From: Sulfitobacter sp. D7 | GTDB taxonomy: Bacteria; Pseudomonadota; Alphaproteobacteria; Rhodobacterales; Rhodobacteraceae | NCBI RefSeq assembly: GCF_003611275.1 | Contig: NZ_CP020694.1 | Span: 868,001 to 932,000, forward strand | Length of the DNA: 64,000 bases | Reading direction: 5' to 3' | Shown: in pieces, positions 5,649 to 34,691 of the stretch | How positions within the stretch are numbered: the first letter of the stretch is position 1 | Layout: every line of letters begins with the position of its first letter | Notes under the pieces: generated by a model | What the model was told of the DNA's origin: nothing | The model's input: the letters and a program-made list of their open reading frames with translations, nothing else | Databases searched by the model: none | Program-made: the position numbers and the translations under genes

Positions 5649-6881
5649 TTACTGGCTACGCACTTCGCGCACCCAAGCGACAATGTTGCGTCGCGCTTCC
5701 TCGTCCATTTGTACAGCATTTGGCGGGGGCATGGCGTGGCTCACGCCCGCTTGGAGATAGATCTGGTCCGCATGACGCGCAACGTCGCCGGGGGTCTCAA
5801 GGTAGACCCCCTTTGGCGCCCACTGCATATTGCCCCAGACTGGTTCTCGGGCATGGCACATAGAGCAATTGCCGATGACGGTATCGTAAGCGCTCTCGAA
5901 CCCCTCAGCAGAGGCATAGGCCTGCTCATATGCCGTCAGATCTCGGGCTTCTGCGTCCTCCCATGTCTCCCCCGTTCTGATGGTGGAAAGCCATGCGATC
6001 AAAACCATAAGCAGCACGGTCACCGCCCAAGTCCAATGCGGACCGGAACCGGTTTTGTGCATCGTGTTGAAGTAGTGGCGAATGGTGACACCGGTCAAAA
6101 AGATCAGGCTTGCGATGATCCAGCTGAACTCTGTTCCAAATGCCAGCGGATAATGGTTCGACAGCATCAGGAACACCACCGGCAAGGTAAGGTAGTTGTT
6201 GTGGGTCGAGCGCACCTTGGCGATCTTGCCGTATTTCGCGTCAGGTGTGCGACCGGCCTTAAGGTCTTCGACAACGACCCGTTGGTTGGGCATGATCTGG
6301 AAAAACACATTGGCGGTCATGATCGTCGCCGTGAAAGCGCCGAGATGCAGCAACGCCGCCCTGCCGGTGAAAATTTGGTTGTATCCCCATGACATGATCA
6401 CAAGGATTACGAACAAAAGCAGCATCAGAACTGTAGGGTGGTTGGCCAATTTGGATTTGCACATCGCATCATAGAGCAACCAGCCAATCGTCAGGGAGCC
6501 GCCGGAGATCAGGATGCCCTGAAACAGCGAAATATCGGCTTTGGTGGGGTCGAGTAGGAACAATTCACCGCCGACCCAGTAGATGATCATCAAGAGCGCC
6601 GCCCCTGACAACCAAGTGCTGTAGCTTTGCCATTTGTGCCATGTCAGGTGCTCTGGCATCCGGGCGGGCGCGACCAGATATTTGACTGTGTGATAAAAAC
6701 CCCCGCCATGTACTTCCCATTCTTCGCCGTAGGCGCCGTCGGGCAGGGCGTCGTTTGGTTTAAGCATTAGATCGAGCGCGATAAAATAGAACGACGCACC
6801 GATCCACGCCATTGCAGTGATCACATGTAGCCAGCGGACGCTGAACGCGATCCAGTCCCACAGAATTGCCAAATCGTACAT
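5649..6881 (-). CDS. puuD: Urate hydroxylase PuuD, membrane domain with C-terminal cytochrome c
   Basis: PuuD is a membrane-bound urate oxidase that converts urate to 5-hydroxyisourate and feeds electrons to the respiratory chain instead of making hydrogen peroxide. The start at 6881 follows AAGGAGACCAGCC and gives 410 residues; the longer frame to 6968 would run into the LysR promoter. About eight hydrophobic helices begin with WIAFSVRWLHVITAMAWIGA. The last 90 residues form a cytochrome c domain with CSMCH heme attachment and a downstream Met-Pro (HAMPPPNAVQ) as likely axial ligand. Genes for the next pathway steps follow beyond the LysR gene. Both domains are visible, so identification is strong. 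Confidence 0.95.
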   Translation of the reverse strand: MYDLAILWDWIAFSVRWLHVITAMAWIGASFYFIALDLMLKPNDALPDGAYGEEWEVHGGGFYHTVKYLVAPARMPEHLTWHKWQSYSTWLSGAALLMIIYWVGGELFLLDPTKADISLFQGILISGGSLTIGWLLYDAMCKSKLANHPTVLMLLLFVILVIMSWGYNQIFTGRAALLHLGAFTATIMTANVFFQIMPNQRVVVEDLKAGRTPDAKYGKIAKVRSTHNNYLTLPVVFLMLSNHYPLAFGTEFSWIIASLIFLTGVTIRHYFNTMHKTGSGPHWTWAVTVLLMVLIAWLSTIRTGETWEDAEARDLTAYEQAYASAEGFESAYDTVIGNCSMCHAREPVWGNMQWAPKGVYLETPGDVARHADQIYLQAGVSHAMPPPNAVQMDEEARRNIVAWVREVRSQ

Positions 6882-6981
6882 GGCTGGTCTCCTTAGATTC
6901 GAATTTTCTAACACCCTAGGCGAGACGGGTTTGTTCTGGTATCGCCGTAAAGGACCAAGCAGCATCAAAAAAGACAGAATA

Positions 6982-7881
6982 ATGTCCTACTTCGATAACA
7001 TCCGCACTTTTGTGCGCGTCTATGAACTGGGCAGCATGTCTGCCGCGGGGCGGGATTTGCGGATATCTCCAGCTGTTACGTCATCACGGATTTCACAATT
7101 AGAAGAACGGCTTGGCGTCAGACTTTTTCAACGGACGACACGCAGTCTATCCCCGACCGAGCAGGGCAAGTCGTTCTACCGCGGGGCGACTGAAATCCTC
7201 GAAGCCGTCGAAAGCGCCGAGGCGCAGATCGTCAACATCACCGAGAACCTGAAAGGATCGCTCTATGTTGCGGCGCCTTTAGGTGTCGGTCGTAGGTTAA
7301 TCGCCCCGCAGGTCCCGGGTTTCTTGAAGAACTATCCCGAAGTCAGCGTGAGGTTGCGTTTGTCCGACCGGAAAGTGGACTTGACCACAGAGGGTCTGGA
7401 TTTGGCATTCTTTCTGGGGCAGCCCGAGGACAGCAATCTGCGCATCCGAAAAATTGCAGACGTGGAGCGGGTGCTCTGCGCATCGCCGGACTATATTGCG
7501 CGCCGTGGCATGCCCGACAGCGGAAGCGCGCTGGTGGCGGAGGGACATGAATGCCTGAGCCTTCGCTTTCCGGGGGCGACCGAATTTCAATGGCGGCTAA
7601 CGACACCGGACGGCCCCAAGCGATTTCGTGTCTCGGGGCGCTATGAGTCAGATGACGGGGACGTGCTCACCGATTGGGCACTTGCCGGTCATGGCGTCGC
7701 AATGAAGCCGGTTTTCGAAATTGCAGAACACTTGCGGACCGGCGCTTTGGTGCCTGTCGCTGAAAAGACGCCTCCCGAGCCGATTCAGATGGCGTGCCTA
7801 TTTACGCATCGTCGTAGACAGGACCCGAAAACGCGCCTTTTCATGGAGTTCATGGTTGATCGCATCGCCGCGACAATCTAG
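6982..7881 (+). CDS. LysR family transcriptional regulator, divergent from puuD
   Basis: This 299-residue LysR protein closely resembles the regulator at 4602-5504 along its full length: shared blocks include RDLRISPAVTSSR, GVRLFQRTTRSLSPTEQG, APLGVGRRLIAPQVPGF, LSDRKVDLTTEGLDLAFF and DGDVLTDWALAGHG. The ATG at 6982 aligns with the start of its sister. The 100-bp gap to puuD holds a short inverted repeat (TTAGA ... TCTAA, 6893-6911) that overlaps the puuD leader. It is flanked by puuD and hiuH and probably regulates urate and allantoin genes. The pair looks like an ancient duplication whose copies now serve different parts of one pathway. Confidence 0.93.
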   Translation: MSYFDNIRTFVRVYELGSMSAAGRDLRISPAVTSSRISQLEERLGVRLFQRTTRSLSPTEQGKSFYRGATEILEAVESAEAQIVNITENLKGSLYVAAPLGVGRRLIAPQVPGFLKNYPEVSVRLRLSDRKVDLTTEGLDLAFFLGQPEDSNLRIRKIADVERVLCASPDYIARRGMPDSGSALVAEGHECLSLRFPGATEFQWRLTTPDGPKRFRVSGRYESDDGDVLTDWALAGHGVAMKPVFEIAEHLRTGALVPVAEKTPPEPIQMACLFTHRRRQDPKTRLFMEFMVDRIAATI

Positions 7882-7905
7882 CGAAGCAATCAGTGGGTCG
7901 AAGCC

Positions 7906-8259
7906 TCAGCTTCCGCGATATGTTGAGTATCCGAAAGGAGAAAGCAACAAGGGCACGTGGTAGTGCGATTGCTCGGACATCCCAAAGCGGATCGGTATGA
8001 CGCCTAGAAACCGGGGGTCTTCAGGCGGCGTGCCGCTTGCATCCAGATAAGGGCCTGCGTGGAACACCAGTTCATATTCGCCCACTTCGAACTCTGCTTC
8101 AGGCAGGATTTGTTCGTCAGTGCGCCCGTCGTTGTTCGTCGTAAGCGTTTTCAACAGATGCCGTTCAACACCGCTGATGCGAAACAATTCAATTTTCAGC
8201 CCTTCGGCGGGGCACCCAAGGGCGGTGTCGAGGACATGGGTTGTAAGATAGCCAGCCAT
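7906..8259 (-). CDS. hiuH: 5-Hydroxyisourate hydrolase
   Basis: This transthyretin-like enzyme hydrolyses 5-hydroxyisourate, the product of PuuD, to OHCU. Its length of 117 residues is normal. Family signatures are the N-terminal LTTHVLDTALGCPAEG, the central NNDGRTDE, and the diagnostic C-terminal tetrapeptide YRGS, the last four residues. The start at 8259 follows an AGGAGAAG signal. The gene is divergent from the puuE fusion (150-bp gap) and convergent with the LysR gene, whose stop is 25 bp away. Identification is very secure because the C-terminal motif separates it from vertebrate transthyretin. Confidence 0.97.
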   Translation of the reverse strand: MAGYLTTHVLDTALGCPAEGLKIELFRISGVERHLLKTLTTNNDGRTDEQILPEAEFEVGEYELVFHAGPYLDASGTPPEDPRFLGVIPIRFGMSEQSHYHVPLLLSPFGYSTYRGS

Positions 8260-8351
8260 TTTTAACTTCTCCTGAAACGCTGTCTGTTTCTAGGCTGAAT
8301 GCCTTTAAGTGACAAATCTCCACTAACAGAAGGCTCCTTTAAAATTTTTTT

Positions 8352-8371
8352 GAAAAACAGATCCATTTTTC
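8352..8371. promoter_or_regulatory. Inverted repeat in the hiuH/puuE divergent promoter region
   Basis: GAAAAA and TTTTTC are separated by 8 nt (CAGATCCA) in the AT-rich 150-bp gap between divergent hiuH and puuE. It could be a regulator site, but A/T arms of this kind arise easily by chance. Confidence 0.25.
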
Positions 8372-8409
8372 CTGTTTAGGTTGGGTTTTAGAAGAAAAGG
8401 AATATTTGC

Positions 8410-9822
8410 GTGAAACGTTACCCAAGAGATATGACCGGCTATGGTGGCGCTGTACCAGCGGCGCAATGGCCGAATGGCGCAAAAATCGCCGTTCAGATCG
8501 TGCTGAACTATGAAGAAGGTGGGGAAAACAATATTCTCCACGGTGATGCTGCGTCTGAAGCGTTCCTATCGGAAATCACCGGGGCCGCTCCCTGGCAGGG
8601 TCAACGCCATTGGAACATGGAATCGATCTATGAATACGGCAGCCGCGCCGGGTTCTGGCGTGTTCACAAACTGCTCAAAAACACGCCAATTACTGTTTAT
8701 GGTGTAGCAACCGCTCTTATGCGGGCGCCCCAGCAGCTCAAGGCGATGAAGGAGGCGGGCTGGGAGATTGCCAGCCATGGTCTGAAATGGATCGAACACA
8801 AGGATATGGAGCCGCAGGAAGAGCGCGCCCAGATCCGCGAGGCAATCCGCCTGCATACCGAAGTGGTGGGGGAGGCCCCGCGCGGCTGGTACACCGGACG
8901 CTGCTCCATGAACACTGTGGACCTTGCCGCCGAGGAGGGCGATTTCGCCTATATCGCCGACAGCTATGCTGATGATTTGCCCTACTGGGTGCGGGCTGGT
9001 GGTAAGGACCAGTTGATCGTGCCTTACACGATGGACTGCAACGACATGCGTTTCGCGATTCAAGCGGGATACACGAACGGTGATCAGTTTGAGAGCTATC
9101 TCAAGGATAGCTTTGACATGCTCTATGCCGAGGGGGCCGAAGGCGCGCCCAAGATGCTTTCGATCGGTTTGCACTGTCGTCTTATCGGGCGTCCGGGCCG
9201 CGCAATGGCGTTGAAGCGCGCCTTGGAACATTTCGCGAAACACGACGGCGTCTGGTTCGCCACAAGGGAACAGATCGCCGATCACTGGGCAAGCCTGCAC
9301 CCGCCTGCCGAGGGGACCGCGCCATCTGATATGGACAGGGGAACCTTTGTCGCGGAATTTGGTGGCATGTTCGAACACAGCCCTTGGATTGCCGAGGGTG
9401 CCTTTGATCTTGAGCTTGGTGCGACCCATGACAATGCAGCAGGCATTCACAACGCACTGGCGCGTGTGTTCCGTAACGCATCCGAAGAACAGCGGCTGGG
9501 TGTGCTGACCGCCCACCCTGACTTGGCGGGAAAACTGGCGGCAGCCGGGCGCCTCACAAAGGAAAGCACTGCCGAACAGGCGGGTGCCGGACTGGATTTG
9601 CTGACCGACGAAGAACGGGAGACCTTCCAGAACCTCAACGCTGAATACGTTGAGCGGCACGGCTTTCCTTTCATCATCGCCGTGAAGGATAACACCAAAT
9701 CGAGCATTCTTGAGGCATTTCACCGCCGTATCAAAAATGACCGCGATACCGAGTTCTCCGAAGCCTGCCGACAGGTTGAGCGAATTGCAGAACTGCGCCT
9801 GATTGAGAGGTTTGCATCATGA
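8410..9822 (+). CDS. puuE: Bifunctional allantoinase PuuE / OHCU decarboxylase fusion
   Basis: One 470-residue chain carries two consecutive steps of urate breakdown. Residues 1 to about 300 are PuuE, a metal-independent allantoinase of the polysaccharide-deacetylase fold that opens allantoin to allantoate (RYPRDMTGYGG, VQIVLNYEEGGENN, ASHGLKWIEH, GWYTGRCSMNT). Residues from about 310 to the end match OHCU decarboxylase, which makes (S)-allantoin (GMFEHSPWIAEGAF, LTAHPDLAGKLA, LTDEERETFQNLN, GFPFIIAVKD). The GTG start at 8410 follows AAAAGGA. Its stop overlaps the allA start by 4 nt. Order within the chain is reversed relative to the pathway, a known fusion arrangement in proteobacteria. Confidence 0.95.
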   Translation: MKRYPRDMTGYGGAVPAAQWPNGAKIAVQIVLNYEEGGENNILHGDAASEAFLSEITGAAPWQGQRHWNMESIYEYGSRAGFWRVHKLLKNTPITVYGVATALMRAPQQLKAMKEAGWEIASHGLKWIEHKDMEPQEERAQIREAIRLHTEVVGEAPRGWYTGRCSMNTVDLAAEEGDFAYIADSYADDLPYWVRAGGKDQLIVPYTMDCNDMRFAIQAGYTNGDQFESYLKDSFDMLYAEGAEGAPKMLSIGLHCRLIGRPGRAMALKRALEHFAKHDGVWFATREQIADHWASLHPPAEGTAPSDMDRGTFVAEFGGMFEHSPWIAEGAFDLELGATHDNAAGIHNALARVFRNASEEQRLGVLTAHPDLAGKLAAAGRLTKESTAEQAGAGLDLLTDEERETFQNLNAEYVERHGFPFIIAVKDNTKSSILEAFHRRIKNDRDTEFSEACRQVERIAELRLIERFAS

Positions 9823-10301
9823 ACAACGTTTTGACGGCAACCACAATTAATTCCGATGCCATTGCGGGGCTAGCAGAACTGATCGATGCATCAGACACGC
9901 CCGACAAGTTCATAAACCAAGGGCGTTGCGGACGTTTTCATGATCGGGCGACCCTCGACGTTGATGGTCGCGTAGGGGTCAGCGTCTTTCAATCCACATC
10001 GTTCTCCATGCCTTTCAAAATGGAAATGATGGAGCGTCATCCTTTGGGCAGCCAAGCTTTTCTGCCGATGCAGGAAGGCGAATATCTGGTCGTGCTAGCC
10101 GAAGATAAAGACGGTGCTCCGGTTGCGCCCCGGGCCTTTATTGCTGGGCCGGGGCAGGGCGTAAACATCGGGCGCAACGTCTGGCACGGGGTTTTGTGTC
10201 CGCTGTCCGATCCGGGGCTTTTCATGGTCGTCGACCGCGTCAGCGAGGGGCCAAATCTGGAGGAACATTGGTTCGATGAGCCATTCATCATCGAGCGATA
10301 A
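9819..10301 (+). CDS. allA: Ureidoglycolate lyase
   Basis: AllA splits (S)-ureidoglycolate into glyoxylate and urea, the last step that feeds the beta-hydroxyaspartate cycle encoded about 3.5 kb downstream. The 160-residue length is usual. Conserved blocks are INQGRCGRFHDRA, GVSVFQST, MEMMERHPLGSQAFLP, ARAFIAGPGQGVNIGRN in near form, and WHGVLCPL. It overlaps puuE by ATGA, implying translational coupling. The enzyme that makes ureidoglycolate from allantoate is not next to it, although an AllE-type gene lies at 19230-20099. Confidence 0.95.
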   Translation: MNNVLTATTINSDAIAGLAELIDASDTPDKFINQGRCGRFHDRATLDVDGRVGVSVFQSTSFSMPFKMEMMERHPLGSQAFLPMQEGEYLVVLAEDKDGAPVAPRAFIAGPGQGVNIGRNVWHGVLCPLSDPGLFMVVDRVSEGPNLEEHWFDEPFIIER

Positions 10302-10358
10302 TAAATAACTCGGCAAAAAAAGCGCCGGCTCACGCATCCATAGGGAGGGACAATTATA

Positions 10359-11783
10359 ATGTCTGATGCATCCATCGGAACGCCGGACCAACTCCGCGAT
10401 CCAAATTACACCCCGCCGCTCACAAAAGCGGTGCCGCTGGGGATCCAGCACGTGCTGGCTATGTTCGTATCGAACGTCACTCCGGCGATCATCGTGTGCG
10501 GCGCTGCAGGTTTCGGCTTTGGCTCAAACAGCCCTGATTTCCCGCAAATGATCTACATGATACAGATGTCCATGTTCTTTGCCGGGGTCGCGACGCTGTT
10601 TCAGTCGATCGGCGTAGGTCCGATTGGCGCGCGTTTGCCGATCGTGCAGGGGACATCGTTTGCCTTTATTCCAATCATGATCCCGCTTGTCGCCGGGAAG
10701 GGCGTGGACGCGATTGCGGTCCTGATGGGGGGTATCGTCGCCGGTGGCCTGTTCCACGCCTTTTTGGGGCTATTCATCGGGAGACTTCGTTTTGCACTGC
10801 CGCCGTTGGTCACTGGCTTGGTCGTGACCATGATTGGCCTGGCTCTGGTCAAGGTCGGTGTTCAATATGCGGCAGGGGGTGTGCCTGCAATCGGCACCGA
10901 AGAATACGGCTCCGGGCTCAACTGGTTCATGGCAGGTACCGTGATTTTGGTGACCCTCGGCCTGAAGTTCTTTACCCGCGGCATGCTTTCTGTGTCGGCC
11001 GTTCTGATCGGCCTTTTGGTTGGCTATGTCGTCGCCTTTGCGCTTGGTCAGGTCAATCTTGGCAATGTAGGTCAAGCGGCAAGCTTTGCGCTGCCGAACC
11101 CGCTACACTTTGGCATCGAATTCTCGGCCGCCGCGGTCATCGGCTTTTGTGCCATGTCTTTCGTCTCGGCCATCGAAACTGTTGGCGATGTTTCCGGGAT
11201 CACCAAAGGGGGCGCAGGCCGCGAGGCGAGCGACCGCGAAATCCAAGGGGCGACCTATGCAGATGGGATCGGCACGGCCATCTCGGGCATGTTCGGCGCG
11301 CTGCCCAATACGTCGTTCAGTCAGAACGTAGGTCTCATCGCCATGACGGGTGTGATGAGCCGGATGGTCGTTACAATCGGGGCGATTTTTCTGATCATAT
11401 GCGGTCTTGTTCCCAAAATCGGTGCGGTGATCTCTTCGATCCCGATCGAAGTGCTGGGCGGTGGTGTCATCGTGATGTTCGGCATGGTGGTCGCGGCTGG
11501 TATCTCGATGCTGTCCGATGTGAACTGGAACCGTCGCAACATGGTCATTTTTGCCATCGCGCTGTCACTTGGTCTGGGCCTGCAGCTTGAGCCGGATGCG
11601 CTTCAGTATCTGCCGGGCACGCTGAAAGTCCTAGGGACTTCGGGCATTCTGCCTGCGGCCCTCATCGCCATCGTTCTTAATCTGGTACTGCCCGAGGAGC
11701 TTTCGGGTGAAGCCACCGAGGAAGTCTCTGGCGGTATGGCAGGACAAGGGAGCGGATCACTCGCGCAGAGTGACCGCGTCTGA
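10359..11783 (+). CDS. NCS2 family xanthine/uric acid permease
   Basis: This is a 474-residue nucleobase:cation symporter of the NAT/NCS2 family with about 12-14 transmembrane helices. The family signature reads QNVGLIAMTG, preceded by the acidic segment around FVSAIETVGDVSGITKG that helps bind the purine ring. The N-terminus is cytoplasmic with the usual PPLTKAVPLGIQHVLAMF. GGGAGGGACAA lies just before the ATG at 10359. It follows allA by 57 bp on the same strand and ends at a strong terminator, so it is the last gene of puuE-allA-permease. Xanthine or urate is the likely substrate from context; the exact purine cannot be read from sequence. Confidence 0.93.
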   Translation: MSDASIGTPDQLRDPNYTPPLTKAVPLGIQHVLAMFVSNVTPAIIVCGAAGFGFGSNSPDFPQMIYMIQMSMFFAGVATLFQSIGVGPIGARLPIVQGTSFAFIPIMIPLVAGKGVDAIAVLMGGIVAGGLFHAFLGLFIGRLRFALPPLVTGLVVTMIGLALVKVGVQYAAGGVPAIGTEEYGSGLNWFMAGTVILVTLGLKFFTRGMLSVSAVLIGLLVGYVVAFALGQVNLGNVGQAASFALPNPLHFGIEFSAAAVIGFCAMSFVSAIETVGDVSGITKGGAGREASDREIQGATYADGIGTAISGMFGALPNTSFSQNVGLIAMTGVMSRMVVTIGAIFLIICGLVPKIGAVISSIPIEVLGGGVIVMFGMVVAAGISMLSDVNWNRRNMVIFAIALSLGLGLQLEPDALQYLPGTLKVLGTSGILPAALIAIVLNLVLPEELSGEATEEVSGGMAGQGSGSLAQSDRV

Positions 11784-11826
11784 TGTCGCTTTCGCGGTGA
11801 GATGATTGCTGCGGAATAGGAATAGC

Positions 11827-11860
11827 AAATGCGGCGCAGGTCTCTGCGCCGCATTTTTTT
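11827..11860 (+). terminator. Rho-independent terminator after the purine permease
   Basis: AAATGCGGCGCAG pairs perfectly with CTGCGCCGCATTT (13 bp) around a GTCT loop and runs into seven T. It lies 44 bp after the permease stop and should end the puuE-allA-permease transcript. Confidence 0.92.
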
Positions 11861-12156
11861 CGTGGGTAACTGCTAGGGCTGGAAGAAGTGCGCGCCGAGA
11901 TCGCCGGGTTCATTTCGGGACTTGGCCAGCCCGACGGAGAGCAGCGTCAAAGGGGGCGGCTCAAACAGATAAAGGATATATGGGGGTTTCAAAACACTAG
12001 GCGATGCCACCTCCAAAGGCCGCAACGATAGCTGCACCTGTGCCAGCGTGCAGCTCGCCTGCGCTGGTTTGCCCAAGGTTCAGACATCGCTCACAGAGCG
12101 GGGCCCTCATCTGAAATACATCTTCAACCTTTCAGAGGTGCGTCATTCCCGGCAGA
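11861..12156. other. Gap without a supported gene
   Basis: This gap separates the purine terminator from the convergent GAPDH gene. One plus-strand stretch (about 11877-12025) reads as LEEVRAEIAGFISGLG then further coding-like sequence before a stop, but it has no start codon or ribosome binding site and I cannot assign it to a family. It may be a gene remnant. Nothing else is seen here. Confidence 0.4.
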
Positions 12157-13158
12157 TCATCGGCTTCTCGCCGCGAGGCGTTCCGCCATTTCAAGCATGC
12201 GTGCTGAGAAGCCCCATTCGTTGTCGTACCAGCCAAAAACGCGCAGCTGGCGCTGTTCGATTGATTGCGTTTCGGGAAGGGCGATCACCAGAGATTCAGG
12301 GCGGCTCCGAAAATCGGTCGAAACACAGGGGTCTTCTGTCAGACCAATGAGGGTCGAGTCTGCAAAGGCTTCGCGCAAGAACTCGACAAAAGAACCTTCG
12401 GGCTTTTCCAAGATTTGCAGCGTCGCATCGATTGCCGAAACTGAGATGCAGGGAACCCGGACGGCGCTGACACTGAGGCGTCCGTGAAATTCTGGCAAGA
12501 CGTTAAAGATTTGATTAAGCGCGCTGGTTGTTGTCGGAACCATTGAGACAGCAGCAGCACGGCTTCTTTCAAGACTGGCACCGGGCTGGTCAACAGTCGG
12601 TTGGCTCCCGGTGTAGCAATGAATGGTCGTGACATGTGCTCTGGAAATTCCAAGCCCTAGATCAATCGTGCGGAGGAGGGGGGTGATCGCATTGGTCGTA
12701 CAAGACGCATTGGACACGATCCGCGCATCGCCAAGTTCTTGTTCGTTGGCGCCTAAGACAACCGTCTGGTCGGCGACCTCGGACGGGCCGGAAATCAGAA
12801 TATTCGATGCCCCAGCGTCGATGCCTGCTTCTGCAAAGTCTCTATCCTTGACCCTTCCGGTGCATTCCAAAACAACATCCACACCGCGTAAATCCAAGGC
12901 CCGCAGGTCCGGTTCGCAGGTAAATGGGATGGGGCGACCGCCAATTGTTATCTGGCGATCTCCCGTTTCCACTTGGAGGGGTAAAGGACCGAAAACACTG
13001 TCGTAGCGCAGCAGGTACGCGCAAGTTTCGAGTGGCGCGATATCGTTGATGCCAACGACTTTGACGGCGGACTGGCTTTCATTTTGTAAAATCTGGCGCA
13101 ACAAAGTCCTGCCGATGCGACCAAAACCGTTGATAAAGACACTTAGCTGGCGGGTCAC
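12157..13158 (-). CDS. gap: Glyceraldehyde-3-phosphate dehydrogenase family protein
   Basis: This NAD-dependent phosphorylating aldehyde dehydrogenase has 333 residues. I chose the GTG at 13158 because GGAGC lies 6 nt upstream and the protein then begins with the Rossmann motif VFINGFGRIGRTLL; the longer frame reads through the upstream gene. The catalytic cysteine is in SNASCTTNAITPLL, the substrate arginine is in AVRVP, and YDNEWGFS is near the end. Some blocks (VTTIHCYTGSQ, ERSRAAA, DNEWGFSARML) look closer to erythrose-4-phosphate dehydrogenase than to housekeeping GAPDH, so the substrate is open. It starts 3 bp after the urea-channel-like gene and is therefore coupled to it, an unusual partnership. 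Confidence 0.9.
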   Translation of the reverse strand: MTRQLSVFINGFGRIGRTLLRQILQNESQSAVKVVGINDIAPLETCAYLLRYDSVFGPLPLQVETGDRQITIGGRPIPFTCEPDLRALDLRGVDVVLECTGRVKDRDFAEAGIDAGASNILISGPSEVADQTVVLGANEQELGDARIVSNASCTTNAITPLLRTIDLGLGISRAHVTTIHCYTGSQPTVDQPGASLERSRAAAVSMVPTTTSALNQIFNVLPEFHGRLSVSAVRVPCISVSAIDATLQILEKPEGSFVEFLREAFADSTLIGLTEDPCVSTDFRSRPESLVIALPETQSIEQRQLRVFGWYDNEWGFSARMLEMAERLAARSR

Positions 13159-13160
13159 GT

Positions 13161-13667
13161 TCAAGCTCCGTACATCAGGAAAAGGGCGGGCAGCCAGGCA
13201 GTCAGCACGCCGCTTAGGAGTGTGGCAACTGCTGTTTGATCTTGAACCGGTTTCTTCAACGTCAAAGTGACGAAATACATGAACCAAAGACCCGACCAAA
13301 TAAGCCAGCAAATGCCCAGCCAGATATCAATGAATTTCGCTGCAGAGGCGAGGGCTAAAAAGGCCTGAGGCAACACGGAAAGAGAGACAAACAGGCTGAA
13401 CCATCCCAAACCGCGGCCATCGGCGCCATTCAACCGGTTAACCGCCACCCAAAGGTAGGTCGCGCTGAACAGCAGCGTCAGGGCAACAGAGCGGATTTCA
13501 TCCCCGGTCGTGGCGCGCACGAGTGACACAGCGGCGACTGTGGCGGTAATTGCCGCTGTGGCAAAGTTGATGACAACAATCTCTCGATTCGAGATGCGCC
13601 CAGACATCCAAAGACCATTCAACACAAGAACTGCCCCCACAAACAGCAGGGATATTGGCAAAAACAT
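13161..13667 (-). CDS. AmiS/UreI family urea or short-amide channel
   Basis: This is a 168-residue protein of about six transmembrane helices. It matches the AmiS/UreI family in the expected order: LLFVGAVLVLNGLW at the start, LLFSATYLWVAVNRL in the middle, GLGWFSLFV, WLIWSGLWFMYF, and LSGVLTAWLPALF at the end. UreI proteins let urea cross the inner membrane; AmiS serves short amides. The histidine-bearing periplasmic loop that gates Helicobacter UreI is shortened here, so acid gating is unlikely. With AllA producing urea nearby, urea passage is a sensible role, but no urease genes are in view. The start is preceded only by GGTAGG. GAPDH follows in the same operon. Confidence 0.82.
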   Translation of the reverse strand: MFLPISLLFVGAVLVLNGLWMSGRISNREIVVINFATAAITATVAAVSLVRATTGDEIRSVALTLLFSATYLWVAVNRLNGADGRGLGWFSLFVSLSVLPQAFLALASAAKFIDIWLGICWLIWSGLWFMYFVTLTLKKPVQDQTAVATLLSGVLTAWLPALFLMYGA

Positions 13668-13733
13668 GAAACCTACCGTTTGTGCGCTGAAAGAAAGTCT
13701 TTCGGTTTCTGGGCCAGTTCAATGCGTCTTGGC

Positions 13734-14699
13734 TTAGAAGTCCACGTCGATTGCGACGCCCTGTTCAACGGCCAAATCAACGACTTTGGCCGCCACCGCG
13801 AGGTCCTGAAGGCCCACGCCGGTCCCGTCGAACAGTGTGATTTGATGATCCGACGTGCGACCCGGATTGGTCCCATTGATGACCGCGCCAAGCTGGGCGA
13901 CATCCGTGTCCTTGATAAGCCCTTCAGCAATGGCATGTTGCGCCTCGCCGATGCTCACGGACTGGGCGACCTCATCGGTGAACACCGAGGCGCGTGCCAG
14001 CAAGGCCGCTTCGACCTCCTGTTTGCCTTTGGTGTCGGTGCCCATACATGCGATATGGGTTCCGGGGCTGACGTGATCGGCCATCAAAGACGGTGAAAAG
14101 GCGGAGGTGATCGAGATGATGACGTCGGCTTCGGTCATGCCGGGCAGATCGACGGCTTCAAAGGGAACCCCAGCCTCATGCGCGACTTTCTCGATATTGG
14201 GTAGCATCTCTGGGTGGTAGTTCCAGCCGATCACCTTCTCGAACTTTCGCTGCTCCAATGCGGCACGTAGCTGGAAGGTGGCTTGGTGGCCTGCGCCTAC
14301 CATGCCGATGACGGTCGCGTTTTCACGTGCCAAGTGTTTGATTGAAACCGACGAAGCCGCCGCCGTACGCAACGCTGTCAGCAAATTGCCACCGACCATC
14401 GCTTTGACCTTGCCGGTGTCAGGATCGAACAGGAATACGGTGGACTGGTGGTTGATAAGGTTGCGTTTTTCAAGATTGTTTGGCCAGTATCCACCGGCCT
14501 TCAATCCCAAGCTCAACCCGGCGCGATCAAATCCGCCTTTGAACCCGTAAAGCGCATCTTCGTGCCCAATCGCTTCGCGTACGACGGGGAAGTTGTAGGC
14601 GTCGCCGGAGGCCATTGCGGCAAAGACTTTCTCGATAGCATCAAAAGCTGCCTCGCGGGTCATTAGGTTGGCGATCTCACGTTCAGGTACGATCAGCAT
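13734..14699 (-). CDS. bhcD: Iminosuccinate reductase BhcD (ornithine cyclodeaminase family)
   Basis: BhcD reduces iminosuccinate to L-aspartate and closes the beta-hydroxyaspartate cycle. The protein belongs to the ornithine cyclodeaminase/mu-crystallin family: LTALRTAAASSVSIKHLA and the nucleotide-binding IGMVGAGHQATFQLRA are clear, as is ADVIISITSAFSP. I chose ATG 14699 because GGAGAG lies 7 nt upstream, giving 321 residues; the 14747 start adds 16 residues without a signal. Order bhcA-bhcB-bhcC-bhcD on one strand with an IclR gene opposite bhcA matches the described cluster of Paracoccus denitrificans, and this decides the name over a generic ornithine cyclodeaminase call. Confidence 0.93.
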   Translation of the reverse strand: MLIVPEREIANLMTREAAFDAIEKVFAAMASGDAYNFPVVREAIGHEDALYGFKGGFDRAGLSLGLKAGGYWPNNLEKRNLINHQSTVFLFDPDTGKVKAMVGGNLLTALRTAAASSVSIKHLARENATVIGMVGAGHQATFQLRAALEQRKFEKVIGWNYHPEMLPNIEKVAHEAGVPFEAVDLPGMTEADVIISITSAFSPSLMADHVSPGTHIACMGTDTKGKQEVEAALLARASVFTDEVAQSVSIGEAQHAIAEGLIKDTDVAQLGAVINGTNPGRTSDHQITLFDGTGVGLQDLAVAAKVVDLAVEQGVAIDVDF

Positions 14700-14868
14700 G
14701 TGTCTCTCCAAATATTTCGTTTCAGAAGACTCCGAGAAGTTCGCCAATGGCTTGAGAACGTCGCGCCGCAGGTTGGGGCGGAAAAGAGTATTCTGACACG
14801 CTTCAAATCAGTTCGCCCATGTGCCCGCCGGAAGCAGACACATGGGGCAGTTGTCTTACATCGCTAGA

Positions 14869-16032
14869 TCAGTAGGCGTGACCGCGTGCCGAAACTGGCC
14901 AGAGGCATTCAACCTTGCCGTTCCGAACACCAACATACCAATCATGGACGTTGGCGGTCGGATCGCAGTGACCCGGAACCAGCTTCAGCTTGTCGTTGAC
15001 CTTCAACGCGCCGTTTGGGTCCATCACCACCCCATGCTCGTCCGAACACTTGATATATTCGACATCATCGCGCCCGTAGATCACTGGCAATCCGCTATCA
15101 ACGGATTGAGCCTTGAGGCCAGCGTCGACGATCGCCTTGTCCGCCTTTGCATGGCTCATGACGCTTGTGAGGATGAAAAAGGCGTTCTCCCATTCCCCTT
15201 GGTCGATGCGTTTGCCGTCTTTGTCGAGGATGCGCCCATAGTCCGCGTCCATGAAGGCATAGGAGCCGCACTGCAGTTCGTTATACACACCCGAGTTGGA
15301 CTCGAAGTAGTAGGAGCCAGTGCCGCCACCGCCGACGATGTCACAGTCCAAACCTTCTGCCTTCAACGTATCGACCGCATCTTTGACCATCGCCACGGCG
15401 ATATCGATTTTCGCCTTGCGTTCGTCATAGCTGTCGAGGTGCTGCATTGCGCCTTGATAGGCTTGCAGGCCGGAAAACTTAAGCCCCTCGGCACCGTCGA
15501 TGGCCTTGGCAATCGCCACCACGTCACGCGTGGTGGTCACACCGCAGCGCCCCGCGCCACAATCGATTTCGACAAGACATTCGATCTCGGTGCCATGTTT
15601 TTGCGCCGCCGATGACAGATCAGCCACATTGGCAAGGTCGTCAACGCAACAGATCGTGCGGGCGCCAAGCTTGGGCAGACGGGCGAGGCGGTCGATTTTG
15701 GCGGGATCGCGTACTTGGTTCGAGACGAGGATATCTTTGATGCCGCCCCGCGCAAAGACTTCGGCCTCTGAGACTTTTTGGCAGCAGACACCGCATGCAC
15801 CGCCGAGCTTTTCTTGAAGCCTTTGGACATCGACCGACTTGTGCATCTTGCCATGGGTCCGGTGGCGCATGCCGTGCGCCTTGGCGTAGTCTCCCATTTT
15901 CTTGATGTTGCGCTCCAGCGCGTCAAGATCAAGCACAAGGCTCGGGGTTTGGATGTCGGCCTCGTCCATGCCCGGTTTTGCCGGGATATCGTAGCCCACT
16001 TCGAATTCGTCGAGATTGGTCATATCTTTCAT
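14869..16032 (-). CDS. bhcC: beta-Hydroxyaspartate aldolase BhcC
   Basis: BhcC joins glycine and glyoxylate to (2R,3S)-beta-hydroxyaspartate, the carbon-carbon bond-forming step of the cycle. It has 387 residues with the D-threonine aldolase/alanine-racemase-like fold. The PLP lysine is most likely K62 in RTHGKMHKS. Other family blocks are GVCCQKVSEAEVFA, CLVEIDCGAGRCGV, VGGGGTGSYYFE and, near the C-terminus, PGHCDPTANVHDW, which supplies metal ligands in this family. The ATG at 16032 has GGAG 7 nt upstream. It lies 36 bp after bhcB and 169 bp before bhcD. The name rests on family plus gene order. Confidence 0.95.
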   Translation of the reverse strand: MKDMTNLDEFEVGYDIPAKPGMDEADIQTPSLVLDLDALERNIKKMGDYAKAHGMRHRTHGKMHKSVDVQRLQEKLGGACGVCCQKVSEAEVFARGGIKDILVSNQVRDPAKIDRLARLPKLGARTICCVDDLANVADLSSAAQKHGTEIECLVEIDCGAGRCGVTTTRDVVAIAKAIDGAEGLKFSGLQAYQGAMQHLDSYDERKAKIDIAVAMVKDAVDTLKAEGLDCDIVGGGGTGSYYFESNSGVYNELQCGSYAFMDADYGRILDKDGKRIDQGEWENAFFILTSVMSHAKADKAIVDAGLKAQSVDSGLPVIYGRDDVEYIKCSDEHGVVMDPNGALKVNDKLKLVPGHCDPTANVHDWYVGVRNGKVECLWPVSARGHAY

Positions 16033-16068
16033 GTCCGTGCTCCTTCGTTTTTCAGTCGATATTTGAGA

Positions 16069-17040
16069 TCAGGCGGCGTTCAGCCACGGCAGCTTGTCGA
16101 GGTCGACATTGCCGCCCGTGATGATCAGGCCGACGCGCTTGCCCCTAAAGGCTTCGGGGTTCTTGAGAACTGTCGCAAGCGGCACTGCAGAGGATGGCTC
16201 CATGACCACGCGCAGATGCTTCCAGGTCAGCTTCATCGCCTCAATGATCTCTTGCTCGGATGCCGTGTAGATTTCGGACACGTGGTTTGAGACAAAATGC
16301 CAAGTCAGGTCCTTGAGCGGGACCAGAAGCCCGTCGGCAATGGTCTTTGGGGCATCGTCGGCGATAATATGGCCCGCCTTGAAGCTGCGGTAAGCGTCGT
16401 CTGCCTGTTCAGGCTCGGCCGCGATGATATGAGTTTCGGGCGCGAGGGTCGCGAGGGTGAGGCAGGTGCCCGATATCATGCCGCCACCACCAATTGGCGC
16501 CACCACAGCATCAAGACCATCCGTCTGCTCAATGAATTCTTTCGAACATGTGCCCTGTCCGGCGATCACTCGGGGATCGTTGTAGGGGTGTACGAAATCG
16601 CCCCCTGTCGCAGCTTGCACCTCGGCAAAGGTCGCCTCACGGGAACTGGTCGACGGCTCGCATTCGGTAATGACACCGCCAAAACGGCGCACCGTATCCT
16701 TCTTTGCCTGAGGGGCTGTGCGGGGCATCACCACGTTGCATGGAATGCCGCGCTTCATAGCGGCATAAGACAGGCAGGATGCATGGTTGCCTGAGGAATG
16801 TGTTGCGACGCCTTTGGCCGCCTGCTCCTCGCTAAGCCCGAACACCGCGTTCGAGGCGCCCCTCACCTTAAAGGCACCCGGCTCTTGAAAGTTCTCGCAT
16901 TTGAAGAACAGCTCGCAACCGGCAAGTTCGTTGAGGTAGTCCGAGGTGCGGATCGGCGTGCGGCGAATATAGGGGCCGATCCGCGCGTGGGCGTCCAACA
17001 TGTCCTCGTACGTCGGGATGTACATCTGGTAATCCTTCAT
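16069..17040 (-). CDS. bhcB: beta-Hydroxyaspartate dehydratase BhcB
   Basis: BhcB removes water from (2R,3S)-beta-hydroxyaspartate to give iminosuccinate. It is a 323-residue member of the serine/threonine dehydratase fold with the PLP lysine K58 in GAFKVRGA, the asparagine motif SSGNHASCLSYAA and the phosphate loop PIGGGGMISG. The ATG at 17040 shares one base with the bhcA stop (TGATG), which implies translational coupling and rules out the longer frame to 17145. In isolation it would be called a threonine dehydratase; its place between bhcA and bhcC makes the specific call strong. Confidence 0.95.
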   Translation of the reverse strand: MKDYQMYIPTYEDMLDAHARIGPYIRRTPIRTSDYLNELAGCELFFKCENFQEPGAFKVRGASNAVFGLSEEQAAKGVATHSSGNHASCLSYAAMKRGIPCNVVMPRTAPQAKKDTVRRFGGVITECEPSTSSREATFAEVQAATGGDFVHPYNDPRVIAGQGTCSKEFIEQTDGLDAVVAPIGGGGMISGTCLTLATLAPETHIIAAEPEQADDAYRSFKAGHIIADDAPKTIADGLLVPLKDLTWHFVSNHVSEIYTASEQEIIEAMKLTWKHLRVVMEPSSAVPLATVLKNPEAFRGKRVGLIITGGNVDLDKLPWLNAA

Positions 17041-18231
17041 CACGCCGCGTCTTTTTGCGCTGCCGCGGTATGGCCGCGATAGTATTCTTGGGCCGCCGCG
17101 ACCCCGGAGCCGAGTTTGATGTCCAATCCAAGATCGACCATGCACATTTCTGCGGTCGCGATGCCGGAGAGTGCCATGACATCCGTCAGGCTGCCGAGGT
17201 GGCCAATCCGGAAGACCTTGCCCGCGACCTCACCGAGCCCCACGCCAAAGGCCACGCCATACTTGTTGGCGGCATGTGTCACGATATCGGTTGCGTTGAA
17301 GTCTTCGGGCGTCCGAATGGCACTGACAGTGTCAGAGTAAACCGAAGGGTCCGTGGCGCAAAGATCAAGGCCCCAAGCGCCCACCGCCGCGCGCACACCC
17401 TCCGCAATCCGGAAGTGCCGGGCAAACACGTTCTCCAGACCTTCGGTCAGCAGCATGTTGCAGGCTTGGTTCAGACCGTTCAGCAGTCCCACAGCAGGCG
17501 TATAGGGATAGGCGTTGTTCGCGTAGCCTTTGGCCATGTCGTGTACGTCGAAAAACGTGCGGGGCAGAGAGGCGGTTTTGGTGGCCTCCATCGCCTTGGG
17601 TGAGAAGCCAACGATGGCGAGACCAGCGGGCAGCATGAAGCCTTTTTGTGACCCGGTCACGGCAACATCCACGCCCCATTCGTCGAAACGGAAATCCATT
17701 GAGGCAATCGACGAAACACCATCCACCAACAGCATCGCTGGATGGCCCGATGCGTCCAGCGCACGGCGCACGGCCGCAATGTCTGATTTCACGCCGGTGG
17801 CTGTTTCATTATGCGTGGCAAGAACGGCCTTGATCTCATGGCTTTTGTCAGCGGTCAGGATCTCTTCGTAGCGATCCGCTGGGATCCCTGCGCCCCATGC
17901 GGTTTCGACTGTCTGCACAGCAAGACCATGACGCTGGCACATATCGATCCAACGATGGCTGAACATGCCGTTGCGTGCCGCAAGCACTTTGTCACCCGAT
18001 GAGAGCGTATTGGTCAGCGCAGTTTCCCACCCCCCCCGTGCCGGTGGACGGAAAAATGAAGATTTCTGCGTTGTCGCTTTTGAGGATCTTACGAACACTT
18101 GCGCGAGCGGGATGTAGAATTTGCCCAAACAGCGGTGACCGGTGGTCGATCGTAGGCATGTCGCAAGCCTTGCGCAGGCTCTCGGGAATGTTGGTCGGGC
18201 CCGGGATGAAAACGGGATTTTGAAAGCTCAT
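17040..18231 (-). pseudogene. bhcA: Aspartate-glyoxylate aminotransferase BhcA, frameshifted as sequenced
   Basis: BhcA transfers the amino group of aspartate to glyoxylate, giving glycine and oxaloacetate. The gene starts at ATG 18231 behind AAGGAG and reads well to residue 65 (IFIFPSTGTGG). A run of eight G on the coding strand (plus-strand C8, 18030-18037) then throws it out of frame. Removing one G restores GTGGWETALTNTLSSGD and a 396-residue protein, normal for this class V aminotransferase, with the PLP lysine K196 in TGSQKGFMLP. The rest of the frame is undamaged, so a sequencing slip, a recent mutation or a slippery, phase-variable tract are all possible. Stop and bhcB start overlap by one base. 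Confidence 0.93.
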
Positions 18232-18293
18232 GGACGGTCTCCTTCCGTTGTTGGCTTCACAATAGACGGAACCAGCGCGAACCGATATTTTTT

Positions 18294-18308
18294 TGAAATA
18301 GGGTTTCA
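18294..18308. promoter_or_regulatory. Perfect inverted repeat between bhcA and bhcR, candidate BhcR operator
   Basis: TGAAATAGGGTTTCA has 5-bp arms around TAGGG, within T/A-rich flanks, in the 169-bp divergent promoter region. IclR regulators commonly bind such short palindromes near their own start and the divergent operon. A partly similar TTTGAAAATAGG occurs near 20190, upstream of allE. Binding itself is inferred. Confidence 0.5.
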
Positions 18309-18400
18309 GTTTTTGGGTTCATGCGTAAAGATGAATGTTGTCAGTGCGTTATATTTTTCACATGGTGATTTCGGCTTTCACATAGAAACGAAAGGTTCTT

Positions 18401-19249
18401 ATGGAATCTCAAGACAATGGTTCAGGAACTGGTCGGAAAGCACGCGGAAGGCCCCGTGGCTGGACGGACAAGACCGCGCAGAACACGATCAAATCGCTCG
18501 ACCGGGCCATGGAGGTGTTCGAGTATCTCAGCGAAGCGCAGGGCAAGCCGCTCTCTAAGCTGGCAGATGAGATGCGCCAATCGCCAGCGACCGTCTACCG
18601 TATCCTTGTAACCCTTGAGGGCAGGGGGCTGGTCGAATTCGATCACGAAGAGCAGGTTTGGTACATTGGTCCGCGCGCGTTTGTGATCGGCGCGCGTTTC
18701 CTTCGGCGCACAAGTCTTGTCGATCGAGCGCGACCCATCATGCGAAAGCTGATGGAAACGACCGGTGAAACAGCTAATATCGGCGTCGGAAAAGAAGAGG
18801 CGGTCCTTTTTCTGAGCCAAGTGGAGACACATGCGAACATCCGCGCCTTTTTCCCGCCCGGCAGCCTTTCTCCGATGCATGCATCCGGCATTGGCAAGGC
18901 GTTGCTCGCATATATGGATCCTGAGCGTTTGGACAAACTACTCTCGAAGGGGCAGATGACGCGGTTTACCGCACATACGATCATCGATCCGACGGCCCTG
19001 CGCCAGAATCTCGAAGCCATTCGGGAAAGCGGCTTTTCAGTTGATAATGAAGAGAGGAACGAAGGCATGCGCTGTATCGCGGCGCCGGTATTCGACATGA
19101 ATGGCGAAGCTGTCGCGGGAATCTCGATATCCGGGCCAACAAGCAGGGTCGGCGTGTCCGAGGTCGAAGAATTGAGCCGCCCCGTCATCAAGGCGGCTCA
19201 CCAATTGAGCCTCGCAATCGGGGGCAGCGTTACTCGGCCGCAGCCTTGA
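18401..19249 (+). CDS. bhcR: IclR family regulator BhcR of the beta-hydroxyaspartate cycle
   Basis: This 282-residue IclR-type regulator is transcribed divergently from bhcABCD. After a basic N-terminal tail (GRKARGRPRGWTDK), the winged helix-turn-helix covers about residues 30-90 (SLDRAMEVFEYLS, LADEMRQSPATVYRIL). The effector domain includes LSPMHASGIGKALLAYM and NEGMRCIAAPVFD, conserved in the family. In Paracoccus denitrificans the equivalent regulator senses glyoxylate; that is known of the family and inferred here. Its 3' end overlaps the 3' end of the convergent allE gene by 20 bp. Start chosen from an AAAGGTTCTT purine stretch before the ATG. Confidence 0.93.
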   Translation: MESQDNGSGTGRKARGRPRGWTDKTAQNTIKSLDRAMEVFEYLSEAQGKPLSKLADEMRQSPATVYRILVTLEGRGLVEFDHEEQVWYIGPRAFVIGARFLRRTSLVDRARPIMRKLMETTGETANIGVGKEEAVLFLSQVETHANIRAFFPPGSLSPMHASGIGKALLAYMDPERLDKLLSKGQMTRFTAHTIIDPTALRQNLEAIRESGFSVDNEERNEGMRCIAAPVFDMNGEAVAGISISGPTSRVGVSEVEELSRPVIKAAHQLSLAIGGSVTRPQP

Positions 19250-20099
19250 GGCGCTGATGTTGAGGGTATGACGCGGCGCCGGGACGGAGCGCCATATGGC
19301 GATTTACGTCCTTGTAAAGCAGGTACCGGAACCGCCCCGGGCCACCCGCATAGCATGCCTGGGGGCAAAAAGCGCGGAGCCACATGTAATCGCCAGCCTC
19401 GACCTCGACCCAATCATTGTTCAGATTGTAGACGGCTTTGCCCTCCAACACATAGAGCCCGTGCTCCATCACATGTGTCTCAAGAAAGGGGATAACGCCG
19501 CCCGGTTCGAATGTCACAATCGTGACATGCATGTCGTGGCGCAGGTCGGACGGATCGACAAAGCGGGTCGTCGACCATTTGCCATCTGTGCCCGGCATGG
19601 GCGTCGGTTCGATGTCGTTTTCGTTCAGGACCAACACATCGGGCATATCCAACCCTTCGACGGCCTCATATGCCTTGCGCACCCAATGGAAGCGCAAGAC
19701 TTCATCGCCTTCGTTTCGCAGGGTCCAGGCGCTCGACGGGGGCAGGTATGCGTAACCGCCCGGGCTCAGCTCGTAAGTCTCGCCCCCGACACGCAAAGTG
19801 GCCGCGCCTTCCACAACGAATAATACGCCCTCGGCTTCCGGATCCAACTCAGCCTTTTCAGAACCGCCTCCGGGCTGTACCTCCATGATGTATTGCGAAA
19901 ATGTCTCGGCGAAGCCGCTCATCGGGCGCGCGATGACCCACAGGCGCGTATCCTCCCAAAAAGGCAAAAAGCTGGTGACGATATCCCGCATCGTACCTTT
20001 TGGGATGACCGCATAGGCATCCTTGAAAACTGCGCGATCAGTGAGAAGCTGCTCTTGCCCGGGATGTCCCCCGTGTGGCGCGAAATATTTGGTGCTCAT
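19230..20099 (-). CDS. allE: (S)-Ureidoglycine aminohydrolase, bicupin AllE/UGHY type
   Basis: The protein has 289 residues and two cupin domains, as in ureidoglycine aminohydrolase, which converts (S)-ureidoglycine to (S)-ureidoglycolate with loss of ammonia. The first cupin spans about 60-135 (YIMEVQPGGGSEK, LFVVEGAATLRVGG, YAYLPPSSAWTLRN). The second spans about 190-270 (FEPGGVIPFLETHVMEHGLY, LEGKAVYNLNNDW) and holds the E/H/Q metal ligands. The product is the AllA substrate, so the gene bridges the purine and glyoxylate modules. The usual partner allantoate amidohydrolase (AllC) is absent from the window. GGAGC precedes the ATG at 20099. It faces bhcR and overlaps it by 20 bp. Confidence 0.9.
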   Translation of the reverse strand: MSTKYFAPHGGHPGQEQLLTDRAVFKDAYAVIPKGTMRDIVTSFLPFWEDTRLWVIARPMSGFAETFSQYIMEVQPGGGSEKAELDPEAEGVLFVVEGAATLRVGGETYELSPGGYAYLPPSSAWTLRNEGDEVLRFHWVRKAYEAVEGLDMPDVLVLNENDIEPTPMPGTDGKWSTTRFVDPSDLRHDMHVTIVTFEPGGVIPFLETHVMEHGLYVLEGKAVYNLNNDWVEVEAGDYMWLRAFCPQACYAGGPGRFRYLLYKDVNRHMALRPGAASYPQHQRLKAAAE

Positions 20100-22312: not shown

Positions 22313-22435
22313 AGCGTTCCACCTAGTGAAATCCATGTTGGACCGTTAACCCTTCGCTGTCTAGTTTTTGCGCAATCACGGCAGGGGCGGAGGAGGCCTT
22401 TGCCGGGGTGCCGCATTTAGGGGGGATAAGGACCG

Positions 22436-29046: not shown

Positions 29047-29495
29047 TCACCCCTTGTCCGACAGGGGCGCGCGTCCCGCCATGACCTGCAGCACGAAGCT
29101 GCCTGACGCCGTAATCATGAGAAAGCCGTGAAATGCCTCTATCCCGGTGATGAAGCGCAGGTGCCCCACGGGGGTCAAGTCGCCGCGCCCCAAGGTGGTG
29201 AAGTTGACCAGCGAGAAATAGAAATAATCCATCATCGTGGTGGGCTTTCCCGCGGGCCGGATCCGTTCAGCGCGCCGATTTGCAAACCCTGCACGGCCCA
29301 AAGGAAGAACAGCGTATAGATGAAAGCCTCGATGACATGCGCGATTGTGATTGCGCCGACGGCCAAGCCAAGGTTCTGGCCATGCGCAGCACTTTTGCGC
29401 TGCGCGATGGTATCGGAAACCCGTTTGAGCACGAGATAGTGGATCGCCGTGCAGATGCTGACGACCAGAACGGATAGAAGCATTGCTTGGATCAT
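29047..29495 (-). pseudogene. Two-helix potassium channel family protein, frameshifted
   Basis: Two overlapping reading frames form one ion-channel protein. The first (ATG 29495) gives MIQAMLLSVLVVSICTAIHY and a second helix ITIAHVIEAFIYTLFFLWAV. The other gives DYFYFSLVNFTTLGRGDL, where TTLGRGD takes the place of the selectivity filter, and the last helix FITGIEAFHGFLMITASGSF. The frames join at about 29240-29256, in CCGCGGGAAAG, if one base is removed. As sequenced the product would end after the second helix, before the pore. It is either a decayed gene or a sequence error. Its place in a copper island does not explain its role. Confidence 0.8.
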
Positions 29496-29536
29496 GAAGG
29501 GGCAACCTGTTTTGCGGGGGGCGTTTCCTCAAGCGA

Positions 29537-34549: not shown

Positions 34550-34691
34550 GGCCTTAGCAGTGTCGTAAGTCGCGATGCCTGTCAACGCGTCCAGCGCTGG
34601 AAGGATTGCAATTAAATCTTCGGCCTTTGCATCAAAGACGCGAAAGTCGACGGGAGGCCCACCCGGTTCGGCAGGCCCCCCTTGGCGAGGG

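What the first reader, a model, noticed from the sequence alone, without database searches (positions are those of the whole stretch)
18030..18037. G8 tract frameshifts bhcA, the entry enzyme of the beta-hydroxyaspartate cycle
The coding strand reads ACG GGGGGG GTG instead of ACG GGG GGG TGG. One surplus G turns residue 67 onward out of frame, and removing it restores a perfect 396-residue aminotransferase. The rest of the operon is intact. Homopolymer error, recent loss, or a reversible slippery switch for glyoxylate assimilation are all possible.
Basis: seen in the sequence. Interest (0 to 1): 0.72.

Follow-up and report, generated by a model that had tools for sequence, protein, structure and literature searches.

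The report
Recent poly-G frameshift breaks bhcA
In one strain of a marine bacterium a run of seven Gs appears to have grown to eight inside the first gene of a pathway that uses glyoxylate, which breaks that gene; the break looks real and very recent, but ordinary.

Summary
A C8 at 18030-18037 (G8 on the coding strand) shifts bhcA after residue 67 and gives a 79-residue product. Close relatives with an open frame carry G7 there (both OXR-159 copies, an S. faviae plasmid). I identify the genome as Sulfitobacter sp. D7: the five replicon sizes seen and the total match the published table. That genome is a PacBio+Illumina hybrid with 918x Illumina coverage of the chromosome, corrected by read mapping and by eye, so an assembly error is unlikely, though reads were not seen. 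D7 shows no general homopolymer problem: the 28 other substitution-free G/C runs of 6-7 in 157 kb agree in length with OXR-159, and 17 other G/C runs of 8+ lie in frame in genes. bhcA otherwise looks conserved (15 synonymous, 1 non-synonymous difference), so the break is recent. A selected reversible switch is not supported: G7 is confined to a small subclade, poly-G is rarer than chance in the window, and the only other length variant (G6 in G039) sits in an assembly with many homopolymer deletions. Best reading: a very recent slippage frameshift that should disable the beta-hydroxyaspartate cycle in this strain. Low to moderate interest; testable from public reads.

The parts
18030..18037 (-). 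G8 tract on the coding strand of bhcA; G7 in close relatives with an open frame
17040..18231 (-). bhcA (L-aspartate--glyoxylate aminotransferase), frameshifted after residue 67
   Evidence: annotated relative WP_322345867.1 in OXR-159
17992..17994 (-). premature stop codon reached in the shifted frame (79-residue product)
16069..17040 (-). bhcB, beta-hydroxyaspartate dehydratase, open; its ATG overlaps the native bhcA stop (TGATG)
14869..16032 (-). bhcC, 3-hydroxy-D-aspartate aldolase, open
13734..14699 (-). bhcD, iminosuccinate reductase, open
18401..19249 (+). bhcR, IclR-type regulator of the bhc cluster, open, divergent
19230..20099 (-). bifunctional allantoicase/(S)-ureidoglycine aminohydrolase; links the cluster to ureide breakdown

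Best explanation
A real, very recent gain of one G by replication slippage in a lineage-specific G7 run of bhcA, present in the consensus of the sequenced culture of Sulfitobacter sp. D7. Ribosomes leave the frame after residue 67 and stop at codon 80, so no full BhcA is made (the pyridoxal-phosphate lysine lies further on; recalled, no call), and coupling to bhcB is probably weakened (inferred). The strain is predicted unable to run the beta-hydroxyaspartate cycle in its normal form (inferred; a search with a BhcA protein found no other close match in the genome). It is an ordinary fresh loss of function, reversible only in the sense that any slippage is. Shown: tract, frame, stop, relatives with G7, no other lesion in the gene. 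Inferred: that the reads support G8, loss of activity, growth effect.
For: G8 at 18030-18037 and shifted frame. G7 with an open frame in the OXR-159 plasmid and chromosome copies and an S. faviae W_1866 plasmid; that S. faviae strain is itself an Illumina+PacBio hybrid (PMC10221251, passages). Of 107 bhcA loci (104 distinct match sequences), 104 are not split into pieces; the three that are: D7, G039 (the G6 run plus a second deletion) and L025 (elsewhere in the gene). Replicon sizes identify D7: 3,371,091, 193,276, 126,656, 85,454, 81,709 and the total 3,963,108; hybrid assembly, 918x Illumina on the chromosome, corrected by mapping and visual inspection. Over 157,191 bases aligned to G026, substitution-free G/C runs of 6 and 7 agree in length in 25 of 25 and 3 of 3 cases (9 others carry a substitution and are left out). 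Of 38 G/C runs of 8 or more in the genome, 17 lie in frame inside genes, 5 at or between gene ends, 15 are not placed inside a gene by the score, and bhcA alone is found out of frame. Frameshift-detector calls: 16 in 524,000 bases for D7, 20 in 392,801 for G026, 47 in 217,001 for G039. bhcA against the OXR-159 chromosome copy: 15 synonymous, 1 non-synonymous, pN/pS 0.022; against the plasmid copy 10 and 2.
Against: No reads could be seen, so an error left in the assembly is not excluded. A second single-base frameshift, not in a long run, lies 11 kb away (29254); at least two such lesions in 157 kb could hint at residual errors, although the paper reports 52 pseudogenes; indels with weak coding scores were not examined one by one. 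Against G061 one of 15 substitution-free G/C runs of 6 differs in length (window 22420-22425, before a start codon), and three A/T runs of 5-7 differ from G026. The detector misses bhcA and the 29254 gene, so its counts are only relative. Loss of function is not shown: a 34% identical aminotransferase exists elsewhere in the genome, below the BhcA cut-off (268.1 against 650).
Confidence: 0.76

Rival explanations
1. Residual sequencing or assembly error: the strain really has seven G.
For: A +1 in a long G run is a classic error site (recalled); the gene shows no other decay; G039 shows that homopolymer errors reach Sulfitobacter assemblies.
Against: 918x Illumina with visual inspection; 17 other runs of 8 or more in frame in genes; 28 of 28 other substitution-free G/C runs of 6-7 agree with G026.
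Confidence: 0.16
2. Selected reversible on/off switch (poly-G contingency locus) for glyoxylate assimilation.
For: G8 within a coding frame reaches the length reported to switch in Campylobacter jejuni (PMC6321876, passages); the open frame differs by one unit; otherwise strong purifying selection.
Against: Of 105 loci readable at the site, 3 have a G run of 7 and 91 have 3 (the two not readable are D7 and G039). Poly-G is rarer than chance in the window. The only other length variant, G6 in G039, is best read as under-called homopolymers.
Confidence: 0.06
3. Programmed or leaky +1 ribosomal frameshifting, or polymerase slippage on G8, still makes enough BhcA.
For: Runs of G are known leaky sites (recalled, no call).
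Against: The close relatives checked code the gene without a shift; no unusually stable RNA fold at the site (z = 0.55).
Confidence: 0.02

Closest known systems
Frameshift pseudogenes from homopolymer slippage
   Same: One-unit gain in a mononucleotide run, gene otherwise intact
   Different: Hits the first gene of a recently described pathway in a strain studied for algal-bacterial interaction
Beta-hydroxyaspartate cycle cluster bhcABCD with bhcR (Paracoccus denitrificans and marine relatives)
   Same: Same genes by NCBIfam, bhcR divergent (PMC11323563 passages)
   Different: bhcA frameshifted; cluster lies beside urate, allantoin and ureidoglycolate genes
Poly-G phase-variable genes of Campylobacter (PMC6321876, passages)
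   Same: G8 within a reading frame
   Different: No enrichment of poly-G, no conserved tract, no trustworthy second length variant

Membership tests
Recently formed frameshift pseudogene | Frame broken relative to intact orthologues | tested here: met
Recently formed frameshift pseudogene | Little or no further decay | tested here: met
   15 synonymous and 1 non-synonymous difference from the OXR-159 chromosome copy, no other indel or stop
Recently formed frameshift pseudogene | Change present in the organism's DNA, not only in the assembly | tested here: inconclusive
   Method and coverage favour it; reads not available here
BhcA family (NF045640) | Single product above the curated cut-off of 650 bits | tested here: not met
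   The open downstream part alone scores 634.3; the OXR-159 protein 755.4
Poly-G phase-variable (contingency) locus | Run of at least 7-8 G in a reading frame | tested here: met
   cut-offs from PMC6321876 (passages)
Poly-G phase-variable (contingency) locus | Long G runs more common than chance | tested here: not met
   Window: 1 against 4.55 expected for G8, 8 against 15.8 for G7, 33 against 59.4 for G6
Poly-G phase-variable (contingency) locus | Tract kept among homologues | tested here: not met
   3 of 105 readable loci have a G run of 7
Poly-G phase-variable (contingency) locus | Tract length varies within a strain and switches expression | not testable with these tools
   needs reads or culture
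Programmed ribosomal frameshift | Shift needed in orthologues too | tested here: not met
   close relatives are in frame without a shift
Programmed ribosomal frameshift | Stimulatory RNA structure at the site | tested here: not met
   101 nt around the site, z-score 0.55; pseudoknots not examined

The most novel reading that the evidence does not exclude
The G7/G8 run is a standing on/off state of glyoxylate assimilation within D7 populations, so that an alga-killing marine bacterium keeps a minority able, or unable, to use algal glycolate and purine carbon.
Probability: 0.05. Interest if true: 0.75.

Novelty: new member of a known kind. Interest (0 to 1): 0.27.

Why it matters
D7 is studied as a model of algal-bacterial interaction, and glycolate is an abundant product of unicellular phototrophs (PMC11323563, start of abstract). 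Taking the bhc cluster as working in this strain would be a mistake if the allele is real, and the prediction (no growth on glycolate or glyoxylate as sole carbon) is simple to test. It also warns that the G6 in a related genome (G039) is probably an artefact.

Tried and rejected
Parallel slippage in relatives: G039 has G6, which at first looked like independent slippage at the same tract. Against the S. faviae W_1866 plasmid (97.7% over 10.7 kb) G039 lacks one base at four G runs, two of them in bhcA, and it has 47 detector calls in 217,001 bases. Two single-base gaps go the other way (S. faviae lacking one). I do not count the G6 as a real variant.

G061 reads GGGGGGN; by its contig it is the metagenome bin EAC16 with many N in the gene, so it says little on tract length. 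Three contigs occur twice among the 107 loci (L004/L156, L010/L199, L007/L210). One search took L002-L025 of the 30 loci (six partial matches left out), 2 of the 13 new loci (L047, L048; the 11 weak matches left out), the 80 kept of 582, and L052.

Backup routes: the next BhcA-like protein is 34% identical; malate synthase G present; best glyoxylate-carboligase match 314.6 against a cut-off of 711.2; a glcD-like gene at 440.6 against 567.9 with a second weak glcD match beside it. Codon-only scoring was too weak for bhcA and was replaced by hexamers. An indel at 34669 looked like a third frameshift but lies after a stop codon. Paper searches: seven papers, none on this locus by title; 20 of 1,260 listed, best first, none with the name Sulfitobacter D7; ten papers hold that name; I opened two. 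The 2023 eLife paper on D7 has no hit for glycolate, glyoxylate or hydroxyaspartate in its main text.

Full report
The sequence. The + strand has eight C at 18030-18037; bhcA is on the minus strand from 18231. With eight G the protein keeps its first 67 residues, adds twelve foreign ones and stops at 17994-17992. The rest of the native frame is open to 17040. NCBIfam names the downstream part BhcA (634.3 bits, below the cut-off of 650; the start is missing) and names bhcB, bhcC, bhcD and bhcR above their cut-offs. The native bhcA stop overlaps the bhcB start as TGATG, so loss of translation through bhcA may also lower bhcB; this is inference.

Relatives. In 107 bhcA loci (80 kept of 582, plus loci; 104 distinct match sequences), 105 could be read at the site: the longest G run is 3 in 91, 4 in 1, 5 in 7, 6 in 3 and 7 in 3. 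The two not readable are D7 and G039 themselves. The three with G7 are both OXR-159 copies and an S. faviae plasmid, all with an open frame. Three of the 107 genes are in pieces: D7, G039 and L025, broken elsewhere. The G7 state is thus confined to a small group of Sulfitobacter and is the likely ancestor of the D7 allele.

The strain. The window's genome has 3,963,108 bases, with contigs of 3,371,091, 193,276, 126,656, 85,454 and 81,709 seen. These sizes and the total are those of Sulfitobacter sp. D7 (PMC6256486, whole text read): PacBio RS II plus Illumina, 918x Illumina on the chromosome, errors corrected by mapping and visual inspection, 52 pseudogenes. An error at a G8 under such coverage is possible but unlikely.

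Is the assembly prone to homopolymer errors? A/T runs of 5-7: 145 agree, 3 differ. Against G061 over 89,147 bases, 1 of 15 G/C runs of 6 differs (all). Genome-wide there are 38 distinct G/C runs of 8 or more: 16 clearly in frame inside genes and 1 more by inspection, 5 at or between gene ends, 15 not placed inside a gene by the score, and bhcA. A frameshift detector gives 16 calls in 524,000 bases of D7, 20 in 392,801 of G026 and 47 in 217,001 of G039; it misses bhcA itself, so only the comparison counts. D7 is therefore not a homopolymer-poor assembly; G039 appears to be, and its G6 is set aside. Against this, at least one other D7 gene in the window carries a single-base frameshift (29254), and weak-scoring indels were not examined one by one.

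Age. Against the OXR-159 chromosome copy bhcA has 15 synonymous and 1 non-synonymous difference (pN/pS 0.022), like bhcB (0.021), bhcC (0.043) and bhcD (0.000); bhcR has 2 and 3 (0.48, few changes). Against the plasmid copy bhcA has 10 and 2 (0.065). There is no further decay in bhcA, so the break is recent, or is an error, or is reversible.

Switch? Poly-G is rarer than in shuffles of the window. G8 occurs at 46 overlapping places in the whole genome, about a sixth of what scaling the window's shuffle mean would give (my arithmetic). Campylobacter jejuni, a standard poly-G switcher, is reported to have such runs in excess, and in the genus most are of 9-10 (PMC6321876, passages). With one trustworthy length variant and no conserved tract, a selected switch is not supported. 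There is no sign of programmed frameshifting either.

Consequence. A BhcA search of the D7 genome finds no other close match (best 34%; 268.1 bits against the cut-off of 650). The genome has malate synthase G, no glyoxylate carboligase over cut-off and glcD-like genes below cut-off. In P. denitrificans a bhcABCD deletion strain is stated not to grow on glycolate or glyoxylate (PMC11323563, passages). I therefore predict that D7 as sequenced cannot assimilate these through the cycle. The cluster sits beside urate oxidase, an allantoinase-type/OHCU decarboxylase fusion, ureidoglycolate lyase and a xanthine/uracil permease, so glyoxylate from ureides is a likely natural substrate (inference).

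Noticed in passing
window 29254 (gene about 29047-29532, minus strand): Second frameshift in the window: an Ion_trans_2 (potassium-channel-like) gene lacks one base that G026 and G061 have, not in a long homopolymer.
   Followed up: partly
L034 (G039:C1:849000-866000): G039 lacks single bases at several G runs compared with S. faviae and has a high rate of frameshift calls; its bhcA frameshifts are probably artefacts.
   Followed up: yes
L051:13041-21549 (OXR-159 plasmid) and L032 (OXR-159 chromosome): OXR-159 holds two bhc clusters. In the plasmid copy IS1247 and a Tn3-family transposase gene separate bhcA from a shortened bhcR-like gene (498 nt against 849), so that copy may have lost its own control region.
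   Followed up: no
window 5649-20099: The bhc cluster lies within a urate/allantoin/ureidoglycolate degradation block; parts of the same block flank it on the OXR-159, W027 and S. faviae plasmids.
   Followed up: partly
window 12157-13311 and 13161-13667: A GAPDH-like gene and an AmiS/UreI transporter follow bhcD in D7, OXR-159, W027 and S. faviae; their role is unclear.
   Followed up: no
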